From positions 62,001-126,000 of the forward strand of contig JAPSLB010000006.1 of assembly GCA_031181145.1 (NCBI GenBank): a DNA stretch of 64,000 nt. The letters run 5' to 3'. The stretch comes from Microvirga sp. GTDB taxonomy: Bacteria; Pseudomonadota; Alphaproteobacteria; Rhizobiales; Beijerinckiaceae. The position numbers were made by a program, and so were the translations under genes. A model generated the notes under the pieces. It made no database searches. It saw nothing but the letters and a program-made list of their open reading frames with translations, and had not been told where the DNA came from. Numbering within the stretch: position 1 is the first letter of the stretch; the number at the start of each line of letters is the position of its first letter. Shown piece by piece: positions 9,982-53,622 of the stretch.

Positions 9982-10067
9982 CCTCACTTTTTGAAGAGCG
10001 CATCGTCTCGAGCTGAAGCCCGGAGCCACTTCTCGCTGGCGCGGCCCCTCTGGGGCCGCACGACGCG

Positions 10068-10489: not shown

Positions 10490-11881
10490 TTAGCCCGGCT
10501 GGAGCATCGTCTCGGGACGAACGACCGCGTCGAAGTCCGCTTCGGAGACGCCCGCCTTGAGAGCCTCTTCCTTCAGCGTCGTGCCGTTCTTGTGGGCGGC
10601 CTTCGCAATTGCGGCGGCCTTGTCGTAGCCGATGGTCGGCGCCAGAGCGGTTACGAGCATCAGGGAGCGTTCCATCAGTTCCTTGAGGCGCTCCTTGTTC
10701 GGCTCGATGCCGACGACGCAATTGTCCGTGAAGCTGATCGCGCCGTCCGCCAGCAGGCGGATCGACTGCAGAACGGCGTTCACGATCACCGGCTTGAACA
10801 CGTTGAGCTCGAAATGGCCCTGGCTGCCGGCGAAGGTCACCGTCGTCTGGTTGCCTGCAACCTGGCAGCACAACATCGTCATGGCCTCGGCCTGGGTGGG
10901 GTTCACCTTGCCGGGCATGATCGACGAGCCGGGCTCGTTCTCGGGAAGCGAGATTTCGCCGATGCCCGAGCGGGGGCCGGAGCCCATGAGGCGGATGTCG
11001 TTGGCGATCTTGAACAGGCCGGCCGCGAGGCTCGCCAGCGCGCCGTGCGTGTAGACGAGCGCGTCGTTGGAGGCGAGCGCCTCGAACTTGTTGGTCGCCG
11101 AGGTGAAGGGCAGGGCGGTCAGTTCCACCACCTTCGCGGCGAACCGGTCGGCGAATTCCGGATGGGCGTTGAGGCCCGTACCGACGGCGGTGCCGCCCTG
11201 GGCCAGCGCGTAGATGCCGGGCAGGGTCTGCTCGATCCGGGCGATGCCGAGGCGCACCTGCGTCGCGTAGCCGGAGAATTCCTGGCCGAGGGTGACGGGC
11301 GTCGCATCCTGCAGGTGCGTGCGGCCGATCTTCACGAGGTCCTTGAAGGCCTCGGACTTGGCTTCGAGAGCCTTGAGCAGGTGCTTGAGGGCCGGAAGGA
11401 GACGGTCGTTGATCTCGCGCGCCACGGCGATGTGCATGGCCGTGGGGAACGAGTCATTGGACGACTGACCCATGTTCACGTGGTCGTTGGGGTGAACGGG
11501 CTTCTTGCTGCCGCGCTCGCCGCCGAGGCGCTCGATGGCGAGGTTCGAGAGCACCTCGTTCATGTTCATGTTGGACTGGGTGCCCGAGCCGGTCTGATAG
11601 ACCACGAGCGGGAATTCGTCATCGTACTTGCCCTGCACCACGTCGGCGGCCGCCGAGGCGATCGCGTCGGCGAGACGGGGATCGAGCTTGCCGAGATCCT
11701 TGTTCACGAGAGCGGCCGCCTGCTTCACGATGGCCAGCGCGTGGACGAGAGGCAGCGGCATCCGATCGGTGCCAATGCGAAAGTTCTGGAGCGAACGCTG
11801 CGTCTGAGCGCCCCACAGCTTGTCGGCGGGAACTTCGATGGGGCCGAAGGTATCTGTTTCGATGCGGGTTGACGGCGACAT
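10490..11881 (-). CDS. fumC: Class II fumarate hydratase
   Basis: Iron-independent fumarase that interconverts fumarate and L-malate in the citric acid cycle, a cytoplasmic homotetramer. The 463 residues fit the usual length. Visible landmarks are [35 protein letters not shown], the [21 protein letters not shown] segment and the superfamily signature [13 protein letters not shown] with the catalytic serine loop. The start has GAGGTC a few bases upstream. It heads a small minus-strand operon with DUF4169 and RHH genes and is divergent from the P450 gene, 88 bases away. Confidence 0.97.
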
Positions 11882-46787: not shown

Positions 46788-46872
46788 TCCCAGATGGCGG
46801 AATTGGAAGACGCAGCGTGCTGTTGACACGCCGCCGATAGGCGTGGGGGTTCGAGGCCCTCTCTGGGAGCCA
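46788..46872 (+). tRNA. Class II tRNA with Asn anticodon GTT
   Basis: 85-base cloverleaf: acceptor TCCCAGA/TCTGGGA (7 perfect pairs), D-arm GCG-GAATTGGAAGA-CGC of the tRNA-Leu style, anticodon arm GCGTG-CTGTTGA-CACGC (5 pairs, anticodon GTT), variable arm CGCC-GATA-GGCG plus T, T-arm GGGGG-TTCGAGG-CCCTC, discriminator G, encoded CCA. Class II variable arms are normal only for Leu, Ser and bacterial Tyr tRNAs. The acceptor end (T1-A72, G73) and anticodon agree with tRNA-Asn, while the body is Leu-like. All stems are intact, so it does not look decayed. Which amino acid it carries is open. Confidence 0.85.
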
Positions 46873-48638
46873 ATCTCTTCGTGAGCTCCGCTTAAACGTG
46901 AGCTCGCCGCATGATCTGAAGAACAATGTCATCGAGCCGGATTGCCGGCTTCCTTGAGTTCGCTCAGAGCTGCGGTCCGGACCGTCGTGTCAATCTTCGA
47001 GATAGTCTGGTATGGCGCCAAGCGCTCTCCGAGGGGCACTTTTTCCGCCCTCATCACCCACCGGATGCATATTTCATAAAGAGGGGTATCGGAGCTGCGT
47101 GGTCGCGCGAAGGGCAGGTCAGACAGGGCTTGAGCGCCCAACCTTTGCGTAAGGAACCCCATTGCTCGACAGGAGAGTTGCTTCCTTGCCGCGAGGAAAG
47201 GCAGGGACGGAGATATGGAGCGGGTGGGACGGTGCTGCCCCGCCGCCAAACGAGGTGGTTCCTCGAATGTCGCCTGCTTCACCCGCACTGGATCCAGTTT
47301 AGCCGTGAGCTCTCACAATGCTAGTCTCCTTTCAGGGGTACTTCAGTCGGCTGGTGCAGTTGCCGTCCGGGTTTTCTAAACGGCCTTTCTGCGAAATTTT
47401 GCCTGTGGGTCCAGAATGCCGCTTGCAGGCGCCTCCCGAGAGCCAACCGAACGTCTGGACCTGCGAAGCGAGGCGGCCTCTACACGATCAGGCTTCTGAT
47501 TGGCTCTGGTGCAACGGGCTTCTGTTCGAGAGTCTCCCGAACAGGGCCGATGATACGGCAGATCTTCCAAATTGCTGTACCTCACCTCAACGCCACCGTT
47601 GGCCCGCAAGCCGAGATTCGTCCCGCCGCGGCAGATGTCGGAGAAGCTGATGTTGATCAATAGGGAAATCGTCTGGCCTAGGGCAGCGTCGACGAAGTCC
47701 GTCACCAGCCTGTGAGCCATAGAGAGATTCAGGAACTCTTCCGCGATGCAGGGATCGAGCGCCTTAATCTCTTTCCGGAAAGCCTCGAGCAATTCGCGCC
47801 TTGCGGAATGCAGGCGACGCGGATGATCTTAGACCGTTTAGGCGATCGTTCTGCGGCATGTGTGCTCGATCGTGTCGTTCATGAGCAGACCCCGATCCTT
47901 CCGTCCAAAGTTCTCGAAGCGGTGGAGCCAAAACAGCTCCTTCTGCCGAAATTGGAGAGGTCGCGCAGATGGCCCGGCGGAACACACACGCCCCGACCAG
48001 TCGGATAGCCTGCAGGAATTCATCCTTCAGCAATCGAATTTCGCCGTACTTCCTGCCGGCGCACAGTGTACCAAGCGCGAGGACGACCGATGGTTCTCAG
48101 CACGATCCCGTACGCCATCCGCAATGGCCTGGAGCGGAAGGATGGCCCAAGGAGGACGGGCCTCGCGAGACGTTCTAGCGCCAGTGCCACAAGATCGAGA
48201 GCATGTCCGCGAACTCACCGCGTGGCGCCGGAACGCCACCTGCTGCGGCCGTTGCGTTCACATTTCTTCGGCGATCTGCATCGCGACTGCGTCCCCTTCT
48301 GCCGTGCAGCCCGTCATAGTAGCGCAAGGAGCGGGGCGCCTTCATCCTGGCGTTCGGGAGGGCCCTTGTTTCGATCCCGGGCTGAACTCTACAGATTCAA
48401 CGTTACAGCGGGTGGTTCAGAAAAATGACGTATCCGCATACGATTCTGCTAGTATCTTTCGATGTACAGCATATCCTTTCGGTATAGATCATGCATACGT
48501 CAAAATATCCAACTCCCGTTACTTGCTTCGGGGTTATGTTGAATGTTTCATTGGGGCGCTTCGCATGAATGGCGGTGCCGTCCACTAGAGCGAATTGCAT
48601 TTGCGAATGGCGCATCCCCTAGTAAATGGGACACATCT
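46873..48638. other. 1.8-kb stretch without recognisable genes
   Basis: Between the unusual tRNA and the phosphopantetheinyl transferase gene. Several frames of 60-240 codons exist on both strands, but none has a recognised family, a good start or consistent composition. A minus-strand frame around 47764-48060 (GRKYGEIRLLKDEFLQAIRL) looks most protein-like and may be a relic. The last 200 bases (48430-48640) are clearly AT-richer and may hold the promoter of the biosynthetic cluster. Confidence 0.4.
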
Positions 48639-49283
48639 ATGCCTTCTCTTGACCCTGAGGCCGGGATCGTGATGCCGGTCTTCGAGAATGACGGTTTAGA
48701 GGTGCTTGCCTGCATGCTCGATGTGAGGCTTGATCTCATCCGCGAGTTGGGCTCATGCCTGACCGAGGACGAATGCCGGCGTGCCGGCGGCCTGACGCGG
48801 GAGCGGGATCGTCGCCGGTTCATCGTTACCAGGGGTCAACTGCGTCATTCCCTTGGCTCCAAGCTGGGGCTTCCGCCGTCCGATGTTGAACTGGAGTACG
48901 GTCCCCAGGGCAAGCCCCGCCTCTCACGCCGCATGCCAATGCGGGAGTTGCATTTCTGCGTTTCGCGGTCTGGCGATTTAGCCGTCATCGCCTTCTCGCA
49001 TGAGCGCGAGGTCGGAGTGGATGTCGAGGAGGTGCGCCCTTTTGCGGAAGCTGATGACATCGCGGCGCTCTGCTTTTCTGTTTCCGATTATGAGTCCTAT
49101 CGCACCCTTCCTCCGGAGGAGCAGCTGGAAGGGTTTTTGCGGCGTTGGACCCGGCTGGAAGCCATATCCAAAGCCTTCGGATGCGGCTTGGGAGGAGCGA
49201 TCCCATCGGATGTTCAAGATTGGGCACTGCATACTTTCGTGCCGAAAGTGGGATACATCGGCACCCTGGCCGCCCAGAATTGA
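48639..49283 (+). CDS. 4'-phosphopantetheinyl transferase (Sfp type)
   Basis: Activates carrier proteins by attaching the CoA-derived phosphopantetheine arm to their Ser. The 214 residues show GVDVEEVRPF (Mg ligands Asp128 and Glu130) and FLRRWTRLEAISKAFGCGL (Glu174, Lys178), the two Sfp-family motifs; in the second the usual Lys before Glu is Leu. The N-terminal half (CRRAGGLTRERDRRRFIVTRGQLR) fits the pseudo-dimeric Sfp size. An upstream frame is open but lacks family similarity. It begins the plus-strand cluster and most likely modifies the carrier domain of the NRPS protein downstream. Confidence 0.88.
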   Translation: MPSLDPEAGIVMPVFENDGLEVLACMLDVRLDLIRELGSCLTEDECRRAGGLTRERDRRRFIVTRGQLRHSLGSKLGLPPSDVELEYGPQGKPRLSRRMPMRELHFCVSRSGDLAVIAFSHEREVGVDVEEVRPFAEADDIAALCFSVSDYESYRTLPPEEQLEGFLRRWTRLEAISKAFGCGLGGAIPSDVQDWALHTFVPKVGYIGTLAAQN

Positions 49284-49568
49284 GGTGCCTGCAATGCCTT
49301 CCTGCGCTTACACAACGACATGGATGAGAAAGGGCGCAAGCTCATCAAGACTGCTTGCACCCTTCATTACTCGCGGTGAAACGCGCAGGACCAGCCGATC
49401 GCTGCACACGACTCGCGACCTGACGATACGTGACTCGTCCTTTCCGATCTGCCTCATGAGTGCGGGGCGACGGGAGTCTCGCTCCCAAAGCTGTCCCGCT
49501 AGGGGAAAATGGCGCCGGAGTTTGCTGTGTTTCCGTCGTCAGTCATGAAAAGTGATTGGAGATCTCCT

Positions 49569-50597
49569 ATGAAGACGGACCTCATGAAGATCCCTGACCT
49601 TCTCGCGGATCTCGCGGGCAGGGACATCACGGTGTGGGTTGATGGCGACCGTCTGCGATGCAACGCGCCCGCAGGTGCGCTCACGCCGGAGTTCCGCGAC
49701 CAACTGCGGGATCGGAAGAGCGAGATCATCGGCTTTCTGAACATGGCCGCTGCGGCGGTCCGGCAGCAACCCGCCATCGTGCCGCTCCAGCCGCACGGGG
49801 CGCAGATGCCCATCTACGCCGTGCCCGGACACAACGGAGCCGTCTTTTCGTTCTCCGAACTCTCGAAGCATCTGGGCGACGATCAGCCTTTCTTTGCGCT
49901 CGAGCCGCCGGGCCTCGACGAGCGGACCGAGCCCATGGAGCGCGTAGAAGATATCGCGGCGTATTTTGCTGAGCAGATCCTTGAATTCCAGCCGACCGGT
50001 CCGTGCGTTATTGCCGGCTACTGCTCCGGCGCTGCGACCGCTTACGAGCTGGCGAGACTCCTGGTTCAGCGAGGAGCGGATGTTCGATGCTTGGCTCTTT
50101 TCGGGCCCCTCCACCCCAGTACGTATCAGGTACGATCCCGTCTGCTGTTCTTCTATGCCAAACGTCAGGCCGGCGCTGTCGCCATGCACCTGCGGAAGCT
50201 GGCGAAGCTTCCGTCGCTCGAGGCGCGGCTCCAGTATCTCACCGATCGCCTTCGAAAACGCAGCGAAGGAGGCCGAGCGCTTCTGGCCCATATTCGCGCC
50301 GACAAGGAAACGGAAAAAACCGACACGGTATTGGAGCGCAGAGCCCGACTCAAATCCACGGCCATCACGGCGCTGCGGCGGTATACACCCGTTCCTTACA
50401 GGGGTCGCGTGTGCGTATTCCTTCCGAACAAGGCTTGGGAGCGGTCCGGGGCGGCGCCTCTCCGATGGCTTCGGGTGGCACCCCAGGCCGAGCTCTATTA
50501 CGGACCCAAGCAATGCTACGGCCCCCTTATGCTCGAGGAACCGGACGCACCGGCCATCGCCGAGTTGTATCGCCAGTCGGTCCGAAGCTCCGAATAA
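49569..50597 (+). CDS. Thioesterase-fold protein with TubC-like docking domain, atypical active site
   Basis: 342 residues. GGAG at good spacing selects MKTDLMKIPDLL as start. Residues about 10-57 (LLADLAGRDITVWVDGDRLR, then GALTPEFRDQLRDRKSEIIGFL) match the TubC N-terminal docking domain of NRPS proteins. The alpha/beta-hydrolase part follows (IYAVPGHNGAVFSFSELSKHL, FFALEPPGLDERTEPMERVEDIAAYF), with the nucleophile elbow GYCSG: Cys152 instead of Ser. The C-terminal segment where a His is expected (YYGPKQCYGPLMLEEPDAPA) has none. So this is either a Cys-dependent acyl transferase/cyclase or a non-hydrolytic partner. It precedes the NRPS gene by 43 bases. Confidence 0.85.
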   Translation: MKTDLMKIPDLLADLAGRDITVWVDGDRLRCNAPAGALTPEFRDQLRDRKSEIIGFLNMAAAAVRQQPAIVPLQPHGAQMPIYAVPGHNGAVFSFSELSKHLGDDQPFFALEPPGLDERTEPMERVEDIAAYFAEQILEFQPTGPCVIAGYCSGAATAYELARLLVQRGADVRCLALFGPLHPSTYQVRSRLLFFYAKRQAGAVAMHLRKLAKLPSLEARLQYLTDRLRKRSEGGRALLAHIRADKETEKTDTVLERRARLKSTAITALRRYTPVPYRGRVCVFLPNKAWERSGAAPLRWLRVAPQAELYYGPKQCYGPLMLEEPDAPAIAELYRQSVRSSE

Positions 50598-50640: not shown

Positions 50641-53622
50641 ATGAGTGAACTCGAACTCCTGCCTTCCGCAACGGAGAGCGTGACGCTCCCTCTCCTGACC
50701 GACCGTGATCATCGAGCACTCGTCGTCGAGTACAACGCCACAGCGGCGCCCTATCCATCGGACCAGACTGTCGTCGATCTCTTTCGCGCGCAGGTGGCGC
50801 GTACCCCGGACGTCGAGGCGATCCGCTTCGGAACTGAAAGTCTGACGTATCGGCAGCTGAATGAGCGCTCCAATCAGATGGCCGCTCAGTTGACCTCGAT
50901 CGGCGTAGAGCCCGGGCAGATCGTCGTCGTGTTCATGGAACATTCCCTCGAGGTCCTCGTCGCAATCCTGGGCATTCTGAAGTCCGGGGCAGCCTATGTG
51001 CCTTTGGATGCGGCGACGCCAAAGGGGCGCCTCACTACGATCTTGAAAGACATTGCCGCGGGGACGGACAGGCAAATTCCGGTCGCGGTCACGCAGGCAC
51101 GCCTGCGGTCGATCATTCCCCCCGACTTGGCCAGGGTGGTTGTCCTCGACGCCGATTTCCGGTCGATTTCGGAGGAGTCTGGAGTGGACAAGCCCTCTGC
51201 AGCCACTCCGGACCACCTCGCCTACATCATCTTCACCTCCGGATCGACCGGTGTGCCCAAGGGCGTCATGATCGGGCACCGAAACCTGGTGAACTACATC
51301 TGGTGGGCCGCTCGGGTGTATAGTCCCGGCGAACGCCTCGCATGGCCCCTGTTCTCGTCCCTGGCCTTCGACCTGACCGTCACGACCCTCTTCACGCCTC
51401 TTACCACCGGCGGCCGCATTGTGGTGTACAGCGGCGATCCCGGGGTTCAGAGCCTCGTCGTGCTCAAGGTCATCGACGACAATGCCGTCGACATCGTAAA
51501 GCTGACGCCGGCGCATCTCGCGTTGCTCCGCGACCGTGATCTCAGCGCCACGCGGCTGCGCAAGTTCATCGTGGGCGGCGAGGACTTCAAGACCGAGCTG
51601 GCTCGTGCCATCACGAAAGCCATTCCTCATCCGGTCGAGATCTACAACGAGTACGGTCCCACCGAAGCCACGGTGGGCTGCATGATTCACCGGTTCGACA
51701 TCGATCGGGACCACTCCCCTTCGGTGCCGATCGGTGTTCCGGCGGCTAATGCCGGGATCTATGTCCTCGACCATCGGCATCGGCCGGTTCCCCCCGGCAT
51801 TGTCGGCGAGATGTTCATTTCCGGGGACGGCCTCGCGAAAGGCTATTTCAATCAACCTGATCTGACCGGCCAGCGGTTTCTCACGACTGACGATCCTCGA
51901 AATCCGGCCTCGAAGCTGCGGCTGTACAAGACCGGGGACCTCGCCCGCTGGAATTCGGAGGGGCGGTTGGATTTTCTCGGCCGCGCAGATCACCAGGTGC
52001 AGATCGGCGGTACCCGCGTGGAGCTGGGCGAGATCGAGGCCCAACTCCTGAAGCATCCCGGCATCCAGGAATGCGCGGTCGCCACGATCACCGCATCGAC
52101 GAGAAGACTCAGTACACAACTGCGCTATTGCGAGCGGTGCGGCATCTCATCCGACATGCCCGACACGACATTTGACGCGGCCGGTGTCTGCAATCTGTGC
52201 CGGGCGTTCGACACGTATGTCGACAAAGCGCAGAGCTACTTCAAGTCACCGGAAGACCTTGAGTTCCTCATCAGGGAAATGCAGGAGAACAGGAGGGGTC
52301 CTTACGACTGCATCGTTTTGCTGAGCGGCGGAAAGGACAGCAGTTTCATGCTGGCCAAGCTCTGCGCGATGGGTGTGAAGCCGCTCGTCTTCACTCTCGA
52401 CAACGGCTTCATCTCGGAGGAGGCCAAAACGAACATCAGGCGGCTCGTGAACACGCTCGGCGTGGATCTCCACTGGGGGAGCACGCCGCACATGAACGAG
52501 ATCTTCGTCGATAGCCTGAAGCGGTTCTCGAACGTTTGCAACGGCTGCTTCAAGACAATCTATACCCTTGCCACCAATCTCGCCCGCGAAAAGGGAATCC
52601 GGTACATCGTGACCGGGTTGTCGCGAGGCCAGTTCTTCGAGACGCGTCTGACCGAGGAAGTCTTCAAGCGGGATGACTACGATCCGGAACGTCTGGACGC
52701 CCTCGTCGTCGAGGCGCGCAAGGAATATCATCGCCGCGAGGACGCGGTGTCACGCTATCTCGACGTGGACATCTTCCGGAACGACTCCCTGTTCGAGGAA
52801 GTGAAGTTCATCGATTTCTATCGCTACTGGAGCGTCCCGCTGGAAGATATGCTCGAGTTCCTGAAGACGCAGGTAGGGTGGAACCGTCCGTCGGACACGG
52901 GACGTTCGACGAACTGCCTCATCAACGACCTCGGCATCTACATCCATAAGAAGCAGCGCGGATACCACAACTACGCTCTGCCCTACAGCTGGGACGTACG
53001 GCTGGGCCAGAAGACCCGCGAAGAGGCCATCGACGAGCTGAACGACGAGATAGACGTGCATCGCGTCAGGGACATCATGGCTGAGATCGGCTACACCGAG
53101 CCGGCCGATACCGAGGACGGCATCGCCCAACTCGTGGCCTACTACGTCTCGCCGATGCACGTGGACGTGGCAGGCCTGCGCGCCCATCTCGCCGAACATC
53201 TGCCGGAGGCTATGATGCCGACCCACTTCGTCCGCCTGGAGCGGATGCCGCTCACGCCAAACGGCAAGATCGACAGGGCTGCGCTTCCCGAACCGACAGC
53301 GGAGAATATCCAATCCGCGCAGGATTTCATTGCTCCGGCGACGGAGACAGAAAAGACGCTGGCTGCCTTGTGGTGCGATCTCCTGAAGGTCGATTCAATC
53401 GGCCGCAACGACAACTTCTTCAATCTTGGAGGACATTCGTTGCTGGTGATGCGTGCGGTGTCGCGTCTGAGGCAGACCTTCGGCGTGGACGTGCAGCTCC
53501 GTAACCTCTTCGAACGCCCGACGGTGGCCGAACTGGCGGAAGTCATCGACGGCATGCTCTGGATGTCGGAGGCGAGGGCTCCCTCGGTGTCCGATGGACC
53601 GAGGGAGGAAATCGAGCTCTAG
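50641..53622 (+). CDS. NRPS: Asn-type adenylation domain interrupted by a zinc-finger PP-loop ATPase, plus carrier domain
   Basis: 993 residues, no condensation domain. A core 1-487: YIIFTSGSTGVPKGV (A3), NEYGPTE (A5), YKTGDLARW (A7), GRADHQVQIGGTRVELGEIE (A8). By motif alignment with GrsA the pocket residues read D244 L245 T248 K287 I310 G312 E337 V345 G346, with A10 Lys876: DLTKIGEVG-K, an asparagine-type code. Residues about 488-822 are an insertion: zinc finger C497/C500/C517/C520, PP-loop SGGKDSS (562-568), CNGC (633-636) and C759. The A domain resumes at about 823 (LVAYYVS, A10 NGKIDR). The carrier domain has NLGGHSLL with Ser933. The insert resembles WbpG-type sugar amidotransferases and sulfur-transferring PP-loop enzymes. 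Confidence 0.92.
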   Translation: MSELELLPSATESVTLPLLTDRDHRALVVEYNATAAPYPSDQTVVDLFRAQVARTPDVEAIRFGTESLTYRQLNERSNQMAAQLTSIGVEPGQIVVVFMEHSLEVLVAILGILKSGAAYVPLDAATPKGRLTTILKDIAAGTDRQIPVAVTQARLRSIIPPDLARVVVLDADFRSISEESGVDKPSAATPDHLAYIIFTSGSTGVPKGVMIGHRNLVNYIWWAARVYSPGERLAWPLFSSLAFDLTVTTLFTPLTTGGRIVVYSGDPGVQSLVVLKVIDDNAVDIVKLTPAHLALLRDRDLSATRLRKFIVGGEDFKTELARAITKAIPHPVEIYNEYGPTEATVGCMIHRFDIDRDHSPSVPIGVPAANAGIYVLDHRHRPVPPGIVGEMFISGDGLAKGYFNQPDLTGQRFLTTDDPRNPASKLRLYKTGDLARWNSEGRLDFLGRADHQVQIGGTRVELGEIEAQLLKHPGIQECAVATITASTRRLSTQLRYCERCGISSDMPDTTFDAAGVCNLCRAFDTYVDKAQSYFKSPEDLEFLIREMQENRRGPYDCIVLLSGGKDSSFMLAKLCAMGVKPLVFTLDNGFISEEAKTNIRRLVNTLGVDLHWGSTPHMNEIFVDSLKRFSNVCNGCFKTIYTLATNLAREKGIRYIVTGLSRGQFFETRLTEEVFKRDDYDPERLDALVVEARKEYHRREDAVSRYLDVDIFRNDSLFEEVKFIDFYRYWSVPLEDMLEFLKTQVGWNRPSDTGRSTNCLINDLGIYIHKKQRGYHNYALPYSWDVRLGQKTREEAIDELNDEIDVHRVRDIMAEIGYTEPADTEDGIAQLVAYYVSPMHVDVAGLRAHLAEHLPEAMMPTHFVRLERMPLTPNGKIDRAALPEPTAENIQSAQDFIAPATETEKTLAALWCDLLKVDSIGRNDNFFNLGGHSLLVMRAVSRLRQTFGVDVQLRNLFERPTVAELAEVIDGMLWMSEARAPSVSDGPREEIEL

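What the first reader, a model, noticed from the sequence alone, without database searches (positions are those of the whole stretch)
50641..53622. Adenylation domain interrupted by a zinc-finger PP-loop ATPase
Seen: residues about 488-822 of the NRPS protein do not belong to the adenylation fold; they carry C497xxC500 and C517xxC520, SGGKDSS at 562-568 and CNGC at 633-636, and the adenylation fold resumes with LVAYYVS and NGKIDR. The insertion site is the A8-A9 loop in which methyltransferase domains are known to sit. Known: interrupted adenylation domains mostly carry methyltransferases; PP-loop enzymes activate C=O groups as adenylates for attack by ammonia or sulfide (WbpG, TtuA, TtcA, CtaC of closthioamide). 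Inference: this protein activates an amino acid, loads it on its own carrier domain and swaps an oxygen for N or S in one polypeptide. I know of no characterised NRPS with this architecture.
Basis: partly seen in the sequence, partly recalled or inferred. Interest (0 to 1): 0.93.

Follow-up and report, generated by a model that had tools for sequence, protein, structure and literature searches.

The report
Asparagine-modifying NRPS cassette in Microvirga
A soil bacterium carries a known but little-understood kind of enzyme that loads the amino acid asparagine and probably alters its side chain on the spot, here inside a compact four-gene set that in several relatives comes with an odd transfer-RNA gene converted to asparagine.

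Summary
One ORF (50641-53622, 993 aa) is an Asn-coded adenylation domain with its carrier domain, interrupted between A8 and A9 by a zinc-ribbon PP-loop domain of about 330 residues. The claim that no such NRPS is characterised is wrong. This is the AMDH (aminomutase/amide dehydratase) architecture published for CysH (cystobactamid) and AlbIV (albicidin), where loaded Asn becomes beta-cyanoalanine or isoasparagine. A swap of O for N or S is not supported: HisH/HisF ammonia partners were found in 0 of 80 AMDH loci and not in the window.
New here: (1) the 80 best of 248 relatives all have the domain inside an A domain, and all 78 readable codes are Asn-type. (2) The gene belongs to a self-contained cassette (PPTase, docking-thioesterase, interrupted A-T, acyl-CoA dehydrogenase) in Alphaproteobacteria and Gemmatimonadota. 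(3) A CxxC...C trio, invariant in 81 of 81 rows, resembles the [4Fe-4S] sites of LarE/TtuA and could explain dark brown CysH. (4) Six Mesorhizobium cassettes lack the domain, five keeping traces of its end. (5) A tRNA-Leu-bodied tRNA-Asn(GTT) accompanies the cassette in Microvirga and Mesorhizobium, not in the two Bradyrhizobium tested. CysH could not be compared letter by letter.

The parts
50641..53622 (+). NRPS protein, A(Asn)-[AMDH]-A-PCP, 993 aa
   Evidence: ORF; Pfam/NCBIfam domains; AlphaFold2 model
50782..51849 (+). A domain, N-terminal part (Pfam 48-403); specificity residues read D L T K I G E V G (Asn-type code)
   Evidence: code positions and the assignment to Asn are recalled and agree with what PMC7966384 says of AMDH homologues
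52123..53106 (+). inserted AMDH (PP-loop) domain, residues about 495-822
   Evidence: TIGR03573 hit 495-805; model pLDDT 90.7; best fold 8wex Z 21.0
52129..52200 (+). zinc ribbon C497xxC500 ... C517xxC520
   Evidence: 4 Cys in 81 of 81 rows; tetracysteine motif of LpNASAT binds Zn (PMC10607449 passages)
52324..52341 (+). PP-loop SGGKDS (562-567)
   Evidence: S562, K565, D566, S567 in 81 of 81 rows
52537..52548 (+). C633-N-G-C636, the CxxC half of the CxxC...C trio
   Evidence: both Cys in 81 of 81 rows
52915..52917 (+). C759 (STNC), third Cys of the trio; candidate [4Fe-4S] ligand
   Evidence: 81 of 81 rows; LarE precedent PMC9283937 passages
53125..53295 (+). A domain resumes (LVAYYVS, A9, A10 NGKIDR with K876)
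53356..53547 (+). carrier (PCP) domain, S933
   Evidence: PF00550 906-969; S933 invariant in 72 rows
53602..53619 (+). C-terminal tail REEIEL, candidate docking motif for the TubC_N domain of the thioesterase
   Evidence: REE[IF][EA][LI] in the window and 12 of 12 loci; REE[IVL]E[LIF] in 8 more loci
49509..50597 (+). TubC_N docking domain fused to a thioesterase with Cys at the nucleophile elbow (GYCSG)
   Evidence: PF18563, PF00975; elbow Cys in 21 of 21 copies including the window
48543..49283 (+). Sfp-type 4'-phosphopantetheinyl transferase
   Evidence: PF01648, PF22624
53673..54932 (+). acyl-CoA dehydrogenase family protein
   Evidence: PF00441/02771/02770; 82-88% identical in 7 of 7 alphaproteobacterial loci
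46788..46872 (+). type-II (tRNA-Leu-bodied) tRNA-Asn(GTT), 85 nt, U1-A72, G73; co-occurs with the cassette
   Evidence: ARAGORN; not listed by Rfam

Best explanation
The insert is an AMDH domain. The A domain adenylates L-Asn and loads it on its own carrier domain, which the neighbouring PPTase primes. The PP-loop domain then uses a second ATP to activate the side-chain amide oxygen (AMP-imidate) and eliminates it, giving beta-cyano-L-alanyl-S-PCP; alternatively it rearranges Asn to isoasparagine. The acyl-CoA dehydrogenase probably acts next on the carrier-bound amino acid (alpha,beta-desaturation), and the docking-thioesterase is recruited by the REEIEL tail to release or hand on the product. 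Shown by others for CysH: Asn loading, dehydration and AMDH dependence. Shown here: homology of the insert to PP-loop N-acetyl sugar amidotransferases, an Asn-type code, a modelled intact fold and a conserved cassette. Inferred: membership of the CysH family by published descriptors, AMP-imidate chemistry, a [4Fe-4S] cluster on C633/C636/C759, and the roles of dehydrogenase and thioesterase.
For: Published family (PMC7966384: abstract, passages, sections 4 and 8; PMC8949500 passages): a 38 kDa domain inserted in the stand-alone Asn-activating A-T module CysH, SGGKD motif, homologues all in Asn-type A domains, in vitro Asn to beta-cyanoalanine, loss on AMDH deletion. Here: insert of about 330 aa with SGGKDS in a stand-alone A-T; Asn-type code DLTK[IV]GE[VI][GA] in the window and 78 of 80 loci, the other two (L070, L100) lacking that stretch; an A_N part before the domain in 80 of 80 (only about 50 residues in L070 and L100), an A_C part after it in 79 of 80. 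Fold: 8wex Z 21.0, nitrile synthetase ArtA Z 13.3, LarE Z about 12.5. The one relative scanned against Pfam (L040) reaches QueC, a PP-loop family that forms a nitrile, at 23.9 bits against a cut-off of 22; the window's insert does not. For QueC and ArtA-type enzymes an AMP-imidate route to nitriles has been proposed (PMC13060819 passages). HisH/HisF-like genes in 0 of 80 AMDH loci against HisH in 8 of 10 sugar-amidotransferase loci.
Against: No CysH sequence could be obtained, so identity to a characterised AMDH is untested. TIGR03573 scores below its cut-off. Dehydratase and isomerase outcomes cannot be told apart by sequence. Six Mesorhizobium cassettes lack the domain but keep the A-T, thioesterase and dehydrogenase, so the AMDH step is not essential to whatever the cassette makes. 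A His at the xxHML place of the thioesterase is present in only 4 of 21 copies and not in the window, so ordinary hydrolytic release is doubtful. Several fold neighbours are sulfurtransferases, so sulfur chemistry is not excluded by fold. The 0 of 80 for HisH/HisF covers fetched flanks only: 52 of 80 loci have at least 5 kb on both sides.
Confidence: 0.82

Rival explanations
1. Amidine or thioamide synthase: the PP-loop domain activates the Asn side-chain C=O for attack by ammonia or sulfide.
For: Closest family and fold are N-acetyl sugar amidotransferases, which make amidines; fold also close to sulfurtransferases LarE, TtuA, YcfA; CxxC...C trio as in such sulfurtransferases. AsnB-like genes lie near 5 of 80 AMDH loci and beside the split Streptomyces form.
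Against: HisH/HisF in 0 of 80 AMDH loci and not in the window; no AsnB-type glutaminase hit in the window; the characterised family member dehydrates or isomerises.
Confidence: 0.1
2. Isomerase first: the main product is isoAsn, made not by amino migration but by exchange of the two carbonyls through a cyclic aminosuccinimide on or off the carrier.
For: Inference: CysH turns beta-hydroxy-Asn into alpha-hydroxy-isoAsn (PMC7966384 passages). Exchanging thioester and amide explains that OH and NH2 appear swapped; a plain 2,3-aminomutase would not. All C and N atoms are kept, as the paper reports from labelling.
Against: No direct evidence; the paper calls it an aminomutase of unknown mechanism; dehydration is what was seen in vitro without the hydroxylase. 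No CysJ-like hydroxylase was noticed beside the window gene (not searched for).
Confidence: 0.25
3. Relic: the insert is inactive and only the Asn A-T, thioesterase and dehydrogenase matter.
For: Six Mesorhizobium cassettes have no such domain and keep the rest, the PPTase being missing in one and a weak partial match in another.
Against: Zinc-ribbon, PP-loop and trio residues are invariant in 81 of 81 rows including the window; inserts of the alphaproteobacterial copies with the cassette are 84-91% identical to it.
Confidence: 0.07

Closest known systems
CysH of cystobactamid biosynthesis (A-[AMDH]-T), Gross et al. 2021, PMC7966384
   Same: stand-alone A-T module, Asn-type A domain, inserted PP-loop domain of about the same size with SGGKD
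   Different: CysH feeds a multimodular NRPS through the shuttle CysB and works with CysJ and CysQ; the window cassette has no other NRPS but a docking-thioesterase and an acyl-CoA dehydrogenase
AlbIV of albicidin biosynthesis (alpha-ANH-like domain), described in PMC8949500 and PMC7966384
   Same: Asn-preferring A-T with a 342-residue PP-loop extension, proposed to make cyano-L-Ala
   Different: feeds the albicidin PKS/NRPS line; sequence deliberately not fetched (listed plant pathogen)
N-acetyl sugar amidotransferase (WbuX/WbpG; LpNASAT 8wex)
   Same: fold (Z 21.0), tetracysteine Zn motif, PP-loop
   Different: stand-alone, acts on sugars, mostly with HisH/HisF genes nearby; none found in the fetched flanks of 80 AMDH loci
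ATP-dependent nitrile synthetases QueC/ToyM and ArtA/NitB
   Same: ATP-dependent amide-to-nitrile step; fold match to ArtA (Z 13.3)
   Different: not embedded in an A domain; act on other substrates
LarE / TtuA / NcsA [4Fe-4S] PP-loop sulfurtransferases
   Same: SGGxDS plus CxxC...C (LarE, TtuA); fold (Z 11-13)
   Different: transfer sulfur; the AMDH reaction is dehydration or isomerisation; a cluster in AMDH is not shown

Membership tests
AMDH-interrupted NRPS (CysH/AlbIV type) | PP-loop (AANH) domain of about 38 kDa / 340 aa inserted in an A domain | tested here: met
   insert about 495-822, SGGKDS, between A8 and A9
AMDH-interrupted NRPS (CysH/AlbIV type) | host A domain specific for L-Asn | tested here: met
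   code DLTKIGEVG(K) read by alignment to motif anchors; assignment to Asn recalled, no loading assay
AMDH-interrupted NRPS (CysH/AlbIV type) | sequence homology to the CysH AMDH domain | not tested
   no CysH record reachable: one genome-contig scan, best 80 of 248 kept, no title naming a myxobacterium among them
AMDH-interrupted NRPS (CysH/AlbIV type) | dehydration or isomerisation of carrier-bound Asn | not testable with these tools
   needs protein MS
N-acetyl sugar amidotransferase (TIGR03573) | curated score cut-off | tested here: not met
   142.9 against 203.2 bits; 146.4
N-acetyl sugar amidotransferase (TIGR03573) | tetracysteine Zn motif and PP-loop | tested here: met
N-acetyl sugar amidotransferase (TIGR03573) | HisH/HisF-type ammonia partners nearby | tested here: not met
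   0 of 80 loci (fetched flanks) and not in the window
[4Fe-4S] PP-loop enzymes (LarE/TtuA type) | SGGxDS plus CxxC...C | tested here: met
   81 of 81 rows
[4Fe-4S] PP-loop enzymes (LarE/TtuA type) | the three Cys bind a cluster next to ATP | not testable with these tools

The most novel reading that the evidence does not exclude
The cassette makes an asparagine-derived inhibitor that hits tRNA-Asn or its charging, and the tRNA-Leu-bodied tRNA-Asn(GTT) is a resistant second copy of the target: self-immunity carried by a tRNA rather than by a synthetase. A bolder form: the Cys-type thioesterase hands the modified Asn to this tRNA. In either case AMDH, a [4Fe-4S] PP-loop domain, is an optional decoration that six Mesorhizobium lineages have shed.
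Probability: 0.13. Interest if true: 0.87.

Novelty: new variant of a known kind. Interest (0 to 1): 0.58.

Why it matters
AMDH of CysH turns an amide into a nitrile on a carrier protein, and the paper that named it leaves its mechanism and metal open. The comparison gives a concrete, testable cofactor hypothesis (three invariant Cys) and a small, self-contained system for biochemistry. The cassette with and without AMDH is a natural knock-out pair. The co-occurring converted tRNA may be a clue to the product's target.

Tried and rejected
Amidine/thioamide formation was tested through partner genes and not supported. Frameshift joining was rejected. A search of 299 genomes of the phylum with the whole protein at E <= 1e-100 gave only the own genome full length; the two other genomes with hits matched the A part alone at 42-44%. 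A solved AMDH structure was looked for by profile and not found; best hits were 8cnz and 8wex. Finding CysH through kin of L105 did not work: 4 of 297 genomes matched, ORFs 1479-1567 aa, none the size of a stand-alone A-T. The viral-contig scan gave 54 loci at 25-39% identity. Plasmid searches: the thioesterase matched 156 records, all under 60% identity (30 listed, none looked at further); the tRNA matched 4 records at 75-78%. Association of the tRNA with AMDH itself is not strict: by pattern it is absent from 2 of 2 Bradyrhizobium genomes with AMDH among 146 searched and present without AMDH in 6 of 145 Mesorhizobium. The rpoB sign test for Microvirga had too few independent pairs (2 on starred branches, 4 in all) to reach significance. 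Against the tRNA: Rfam's tRNA model listed none of the Microvirga copies tested (window at E <= 0.1; L174, L177, L180 at E <= 10), though it found two Mesorhizobium copies (45.9 and 47.7 bits) and two tRNA-Leu (52 and 53 bits). A type-II model built from three tRNA-Leu and two Mesorhizobium copies matched all eight Microvirga copies full length at 80-94 bits, the lowest in G329, the one without the interrupted gene. In one search, four of thirteen loci (L021, L022, L023, L166) gave no ORF with the motif pattern and dropped out. Literature: ten searches, seen as listings; none of the listed titles or abstracts, nor the passages read, proposes an iron-sulfur cluster for AMDH or describes this cassette. 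PMC7966384 itself does suggest an unknown metal cofactor and compares with the iron of nitrile hydratase. The library holds only open papers, and Lundy et al. 2020 on interrupted A domains was not held.
Full report
Observation. ORF 50641-53622 (+) encodes 993 aa: AMP-binding 48-403, AMP-binding_C 829-876 and PP-binding 906-969. The stretch 495-805 matches N-acetyl sugar amidotransferase TIGR03573 at 142.9 bits, below its cut-off of 203.2. The AlphaFold2 model of the whole protein (72 rows, pLDDT 87.3, pTM 0.68) shows an adenylation fold around the insert (4d4g, 466 residues, rmsd 1.9; 5wmm, a methyltransferase-interrupted A domain, 473 residues, rmsd 2.0). The insert alone models at pLDDT 90.7, pTM 0.90 (81 rows). 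The genus is Microvirga: four same-genus hits (G301, G318, G320, G322) lie on contigs of exactly the lengths of Microvirga records found by name.

It is a known architecture. PMC7966384 (abstract, passages and sections 4 and 8) describes the AMDH domain, a 38 kDa insert in the stand-alone Asn-activating A-T protein CysH, 69% identical to the domain in AlbIV. CysH converts loaded Asn to beta-cyanoalanine in vitro. Deleting AMDH removes products with cyanoalanine or isoasparagine. [quoted passage not shown] PMC8949500 (passages) describes the same domain in AlbIV as alpha-ANH-like. I could not obtain CysH letters; AlbIV was not fetched on purpose. Membership therefore rests on these descriptors: inserted PP-loop domain of that size, Asn-type A domain, stand-alone A-T.

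How general. An alignment of ten inserts drew 248 relatives from genome contigs, of which the best 80 were kept. In 80 of 80 an A_N part lies before the domain (only about 50 residues in L070, after a stop codon, and in L100, cut by the contig start); in 79 of 80 an A_C part and in 78 of 80 a carrier domain follows, the missing ones at contig ends. The specificity residues read DLTK[IV]GE[VI][GA] in the window and 78 of 80, L070 and L100 having no such stretch. The code positions and their meaning (Asn) are recalled and placed on motif anchors. Record titles name Pseudomonadota, Gemmatimonadota, Bacteroidota, Cyanobacteriota, Acidobacteriota, Chloroflexota, Actinomycetota, Verrucomicrobiota, Nitrospirota and others. 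A Streptomyces plasmid has a split version: an uninterrupted A-T with another code (DARHASLMT), then a separate protein with the PP-loop domain, annotated as condensation-domain protein, next to an AsnB gene.

Mechanism. Best fold match is LpNASAT 8wex (Z 21.0, rmsd 4.7, 306 residues); then NAD synthetase, nitrile synthetase ArtA (Z 13.3), LarE, YcfA and NcsA. The one relative scanned with Pfam, L040, passes the QueC cut-off in its AMDH stretch (23.9 against 22 bits); the window's does not. For QueC and ArtA-type enzymes an AMP-imidate route to the nitrile has been proposed (PMC13060819, passages). The simplest reading is ATP-dependent dehydration of the Asn amide. Against amidine formation: HisH/HisF-like genes were found in 0 of 80 AMDH loci (fetched flanks; 52 of 80 have 5 kb or more on both sides) and not in the window, while HisH was found in 8 of 10 loci with sugar amidotransferases (two of the ten, L167 and L168, supplied the queries, and two, L024 and L025, also carry an AMDH NRPS some 15 kb away). 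AsnB-like genes lie in 5 of 80 loci, not in the window.

Metal. Besides the four Cys of the zinc motif (zinc shown for LpNASAT, PMC10607449 passages), three more Cys are invariant in 81 of 81 rows: C633, C636 and C759. SGGxDS with CxxC...C is described for [4Fe-4S] LarE, and three Cys for TtuA (PMC9283937 passages); the profile alignment puts CNGC on a CxxC of MmLarE (8cnz). Of nine other PP-loop sequences aligned, five sugar-amidotransferase-like ones (L167, L170, L108, L111, L112) and two stand-alone AMDH-like ones (L169, L027) also have the trio; L168 and L024 do not. So the trio is probably older than AMDH. A cluster would fit the brown colour of CysH. This is inference: distances in the model could not be measured.

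Isomerisation. CysH turns beta-hydroxy-Asn into alpha-hydroxy-isoAsn. A plain amino migration would not move the hydroxyl; exchange of thioester and amide through an aminosuccinimide would. This is my inference, not a result.

The cassette. In seven of seven alphaproteobacterial loci tested (Microvirga, Bradyrhizobium, Mesorhizobium) the order is PPTase, TubC_N-thioesterase, A-[AMDH]-T, acyl-CoA dehydrogenase; four Gemmatimonadota loci have the same four genes in the order PPTase, dehydrogenase, A-[AMDH]-T, thioesterase, and a fifth (L036) is cut by the contig end. Of the other window ORFs tested, only two had a match in these seven loci, both weak and partial: 47860-48588 in L033 (33%, 74 aa) and 60956-62554 in L030 (30%, 125 aa). 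The NRPS tail REE[IF][EA][LI] is kept in 12 of 12 loci aligned and in the window, and as REE[IVL]E[LIF] in eight more, fitting docking to TubC_N. The thioesterase has Cys in the nucleophile elbow in 21 of 21 copies; a His at the xxHML place is in 4 of 21 (L034, L039, L172, L229) and not in the window. Acyl-CoA dehydrogenase homologues lie within the fetched flanks of 46 of 80 AMDH loci; in L040 one sits beside an ornithine cyclodeaminase and a separate A domain, suggesting oxidation of carrier-bound amino acids (inference).

Natural absence of AMDH. Six Mesorhizobium genomes (genus of G360; L224-L229) have the cassette with an uninterrupted A-T: Asn-type code kept, A part 75-79% identical to the window. 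Against the interrupted Mesorhizobium gene in L032 their DNA matches at 87-95% up to 10000-10009 and again from 10967-10979 in five, inside the C-terminal end of AMDH, and from 11005 in the sixth. The traces point to in-frame loss rather than a primitive empty site. The PPTase was not found in one of the six and only as a partial weak match in another.

The tRNA. At 46788-46872 ARAGORN finds a tRNA with the long variable arm and D arm of tRNA-Leu(CAG) but the anticodon GTT, U1-A72 and G73. In Microvirga it is in 7 of 7 genomes with the interrupted gene and 1 of 30 without (three further hits outside the genus are tRNA-Leu(CAG)). On an rpoB tree of 29 of these 37 genomes (G000 has no rpoB hit) the six others with the gene are not one clade (AU p 1.8e-48), yet independent pairs are too few for significance. 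It is near the cassette in the window and G334 and far away or on another contig in the other five. In Mesorhizobium a related form, 76-81% identical to the Microvirga ones, is in 7 of 146 genomes by pattern, and all 7 have the cassette within 1.2 kb of it, one with and six without AMDH. These seven were found by the tRNA alone, so the link to the cassette is not built in; how many cassettes lack the tRNA is not known there. In Bradyrhizobium the pattern was in 0 of 146, including 2 with the interrupted gene. All 15 copies read have U1, A72, G73 and GTT. Of nine positions fixed between five of these and three tRNA-Leu(CAG), eight are the anticodon, two more of its loop, and 1, 72, 73 (their meaning as Asn identity elements is recalled). 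Rfam's tRNA model finds the two Mesorhizobium copies tested but none of the Microvirga ones tested; a type-II model made here fits all eight Microvirga copies full length at 80-94 bits. Whether it is charged and used is untested; a resistant copy of the product's target is one possibility.

Verdict. Architecture known; the window is a further member in a new, compact setting, with a testable metal hypothesis, a natural series without the domain, and an unexplained partner tRNA.

Noticed in passing
window 46788-46872: tRNA-Leu-bodied tRNA-Asn(GTT) that co-occurs with the cassette in Microvirga and Mesorhizobium but not in two Bradyrhizobium; called by ARAGORN, not by Rfam's tRNA model.
   Followed up: partly
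L224-L229 (genus of G360, Mesorhizobium: G883, G885, G911, G926, G851, G808): Cassette with AMDH missing from the A domain; five of six keep traces of its C-terminal end.
   Followed up: partly
L026 18077-22127 (Streptomyces sp. NBC_01216 plasmid): Split form: uninterrupted A-T followed by a separate PP-loop plus condensation-annotated protein, with AsnB upstream and a different A-domain code.
   Followed up: partly
L025 11777-25466 (Roseovarius pelagicus plasmid): NRPS with AMDH in its first module, beside a separate A domain, carrier protein, acyl-CoA dehydrogenase and methyltransferase; also on a Pseudohalocynthiibacter plasmid.
   Followed up: partly
L040 2369-19683 (Anaerolineae MAG): Uncharacterised cluster with ornithine cyclodeaminase, acyl-CoA dehydrogenase, separate A domain and C-A(AMDH)-T; acyl-CoA dehydrogenase homologues lie near 46 of 80 AMDH loci.
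   Followed up: no
window 49509-50597: Docking-thioesterase with Cys at the nucleophile place (21 of 21 copies) and mostly no His at the xxHML place (4 of 21 have it); may be an acyl shuttle or cyclase rather than a hydrolase.
   Followed up: no
L169 715-3774 (Bradyrhizobium jicamae): Stand-alone 427-aa PP-loop protein with AMDH-like STNC motif beside an AsnB-like gene.
   Followed up: no
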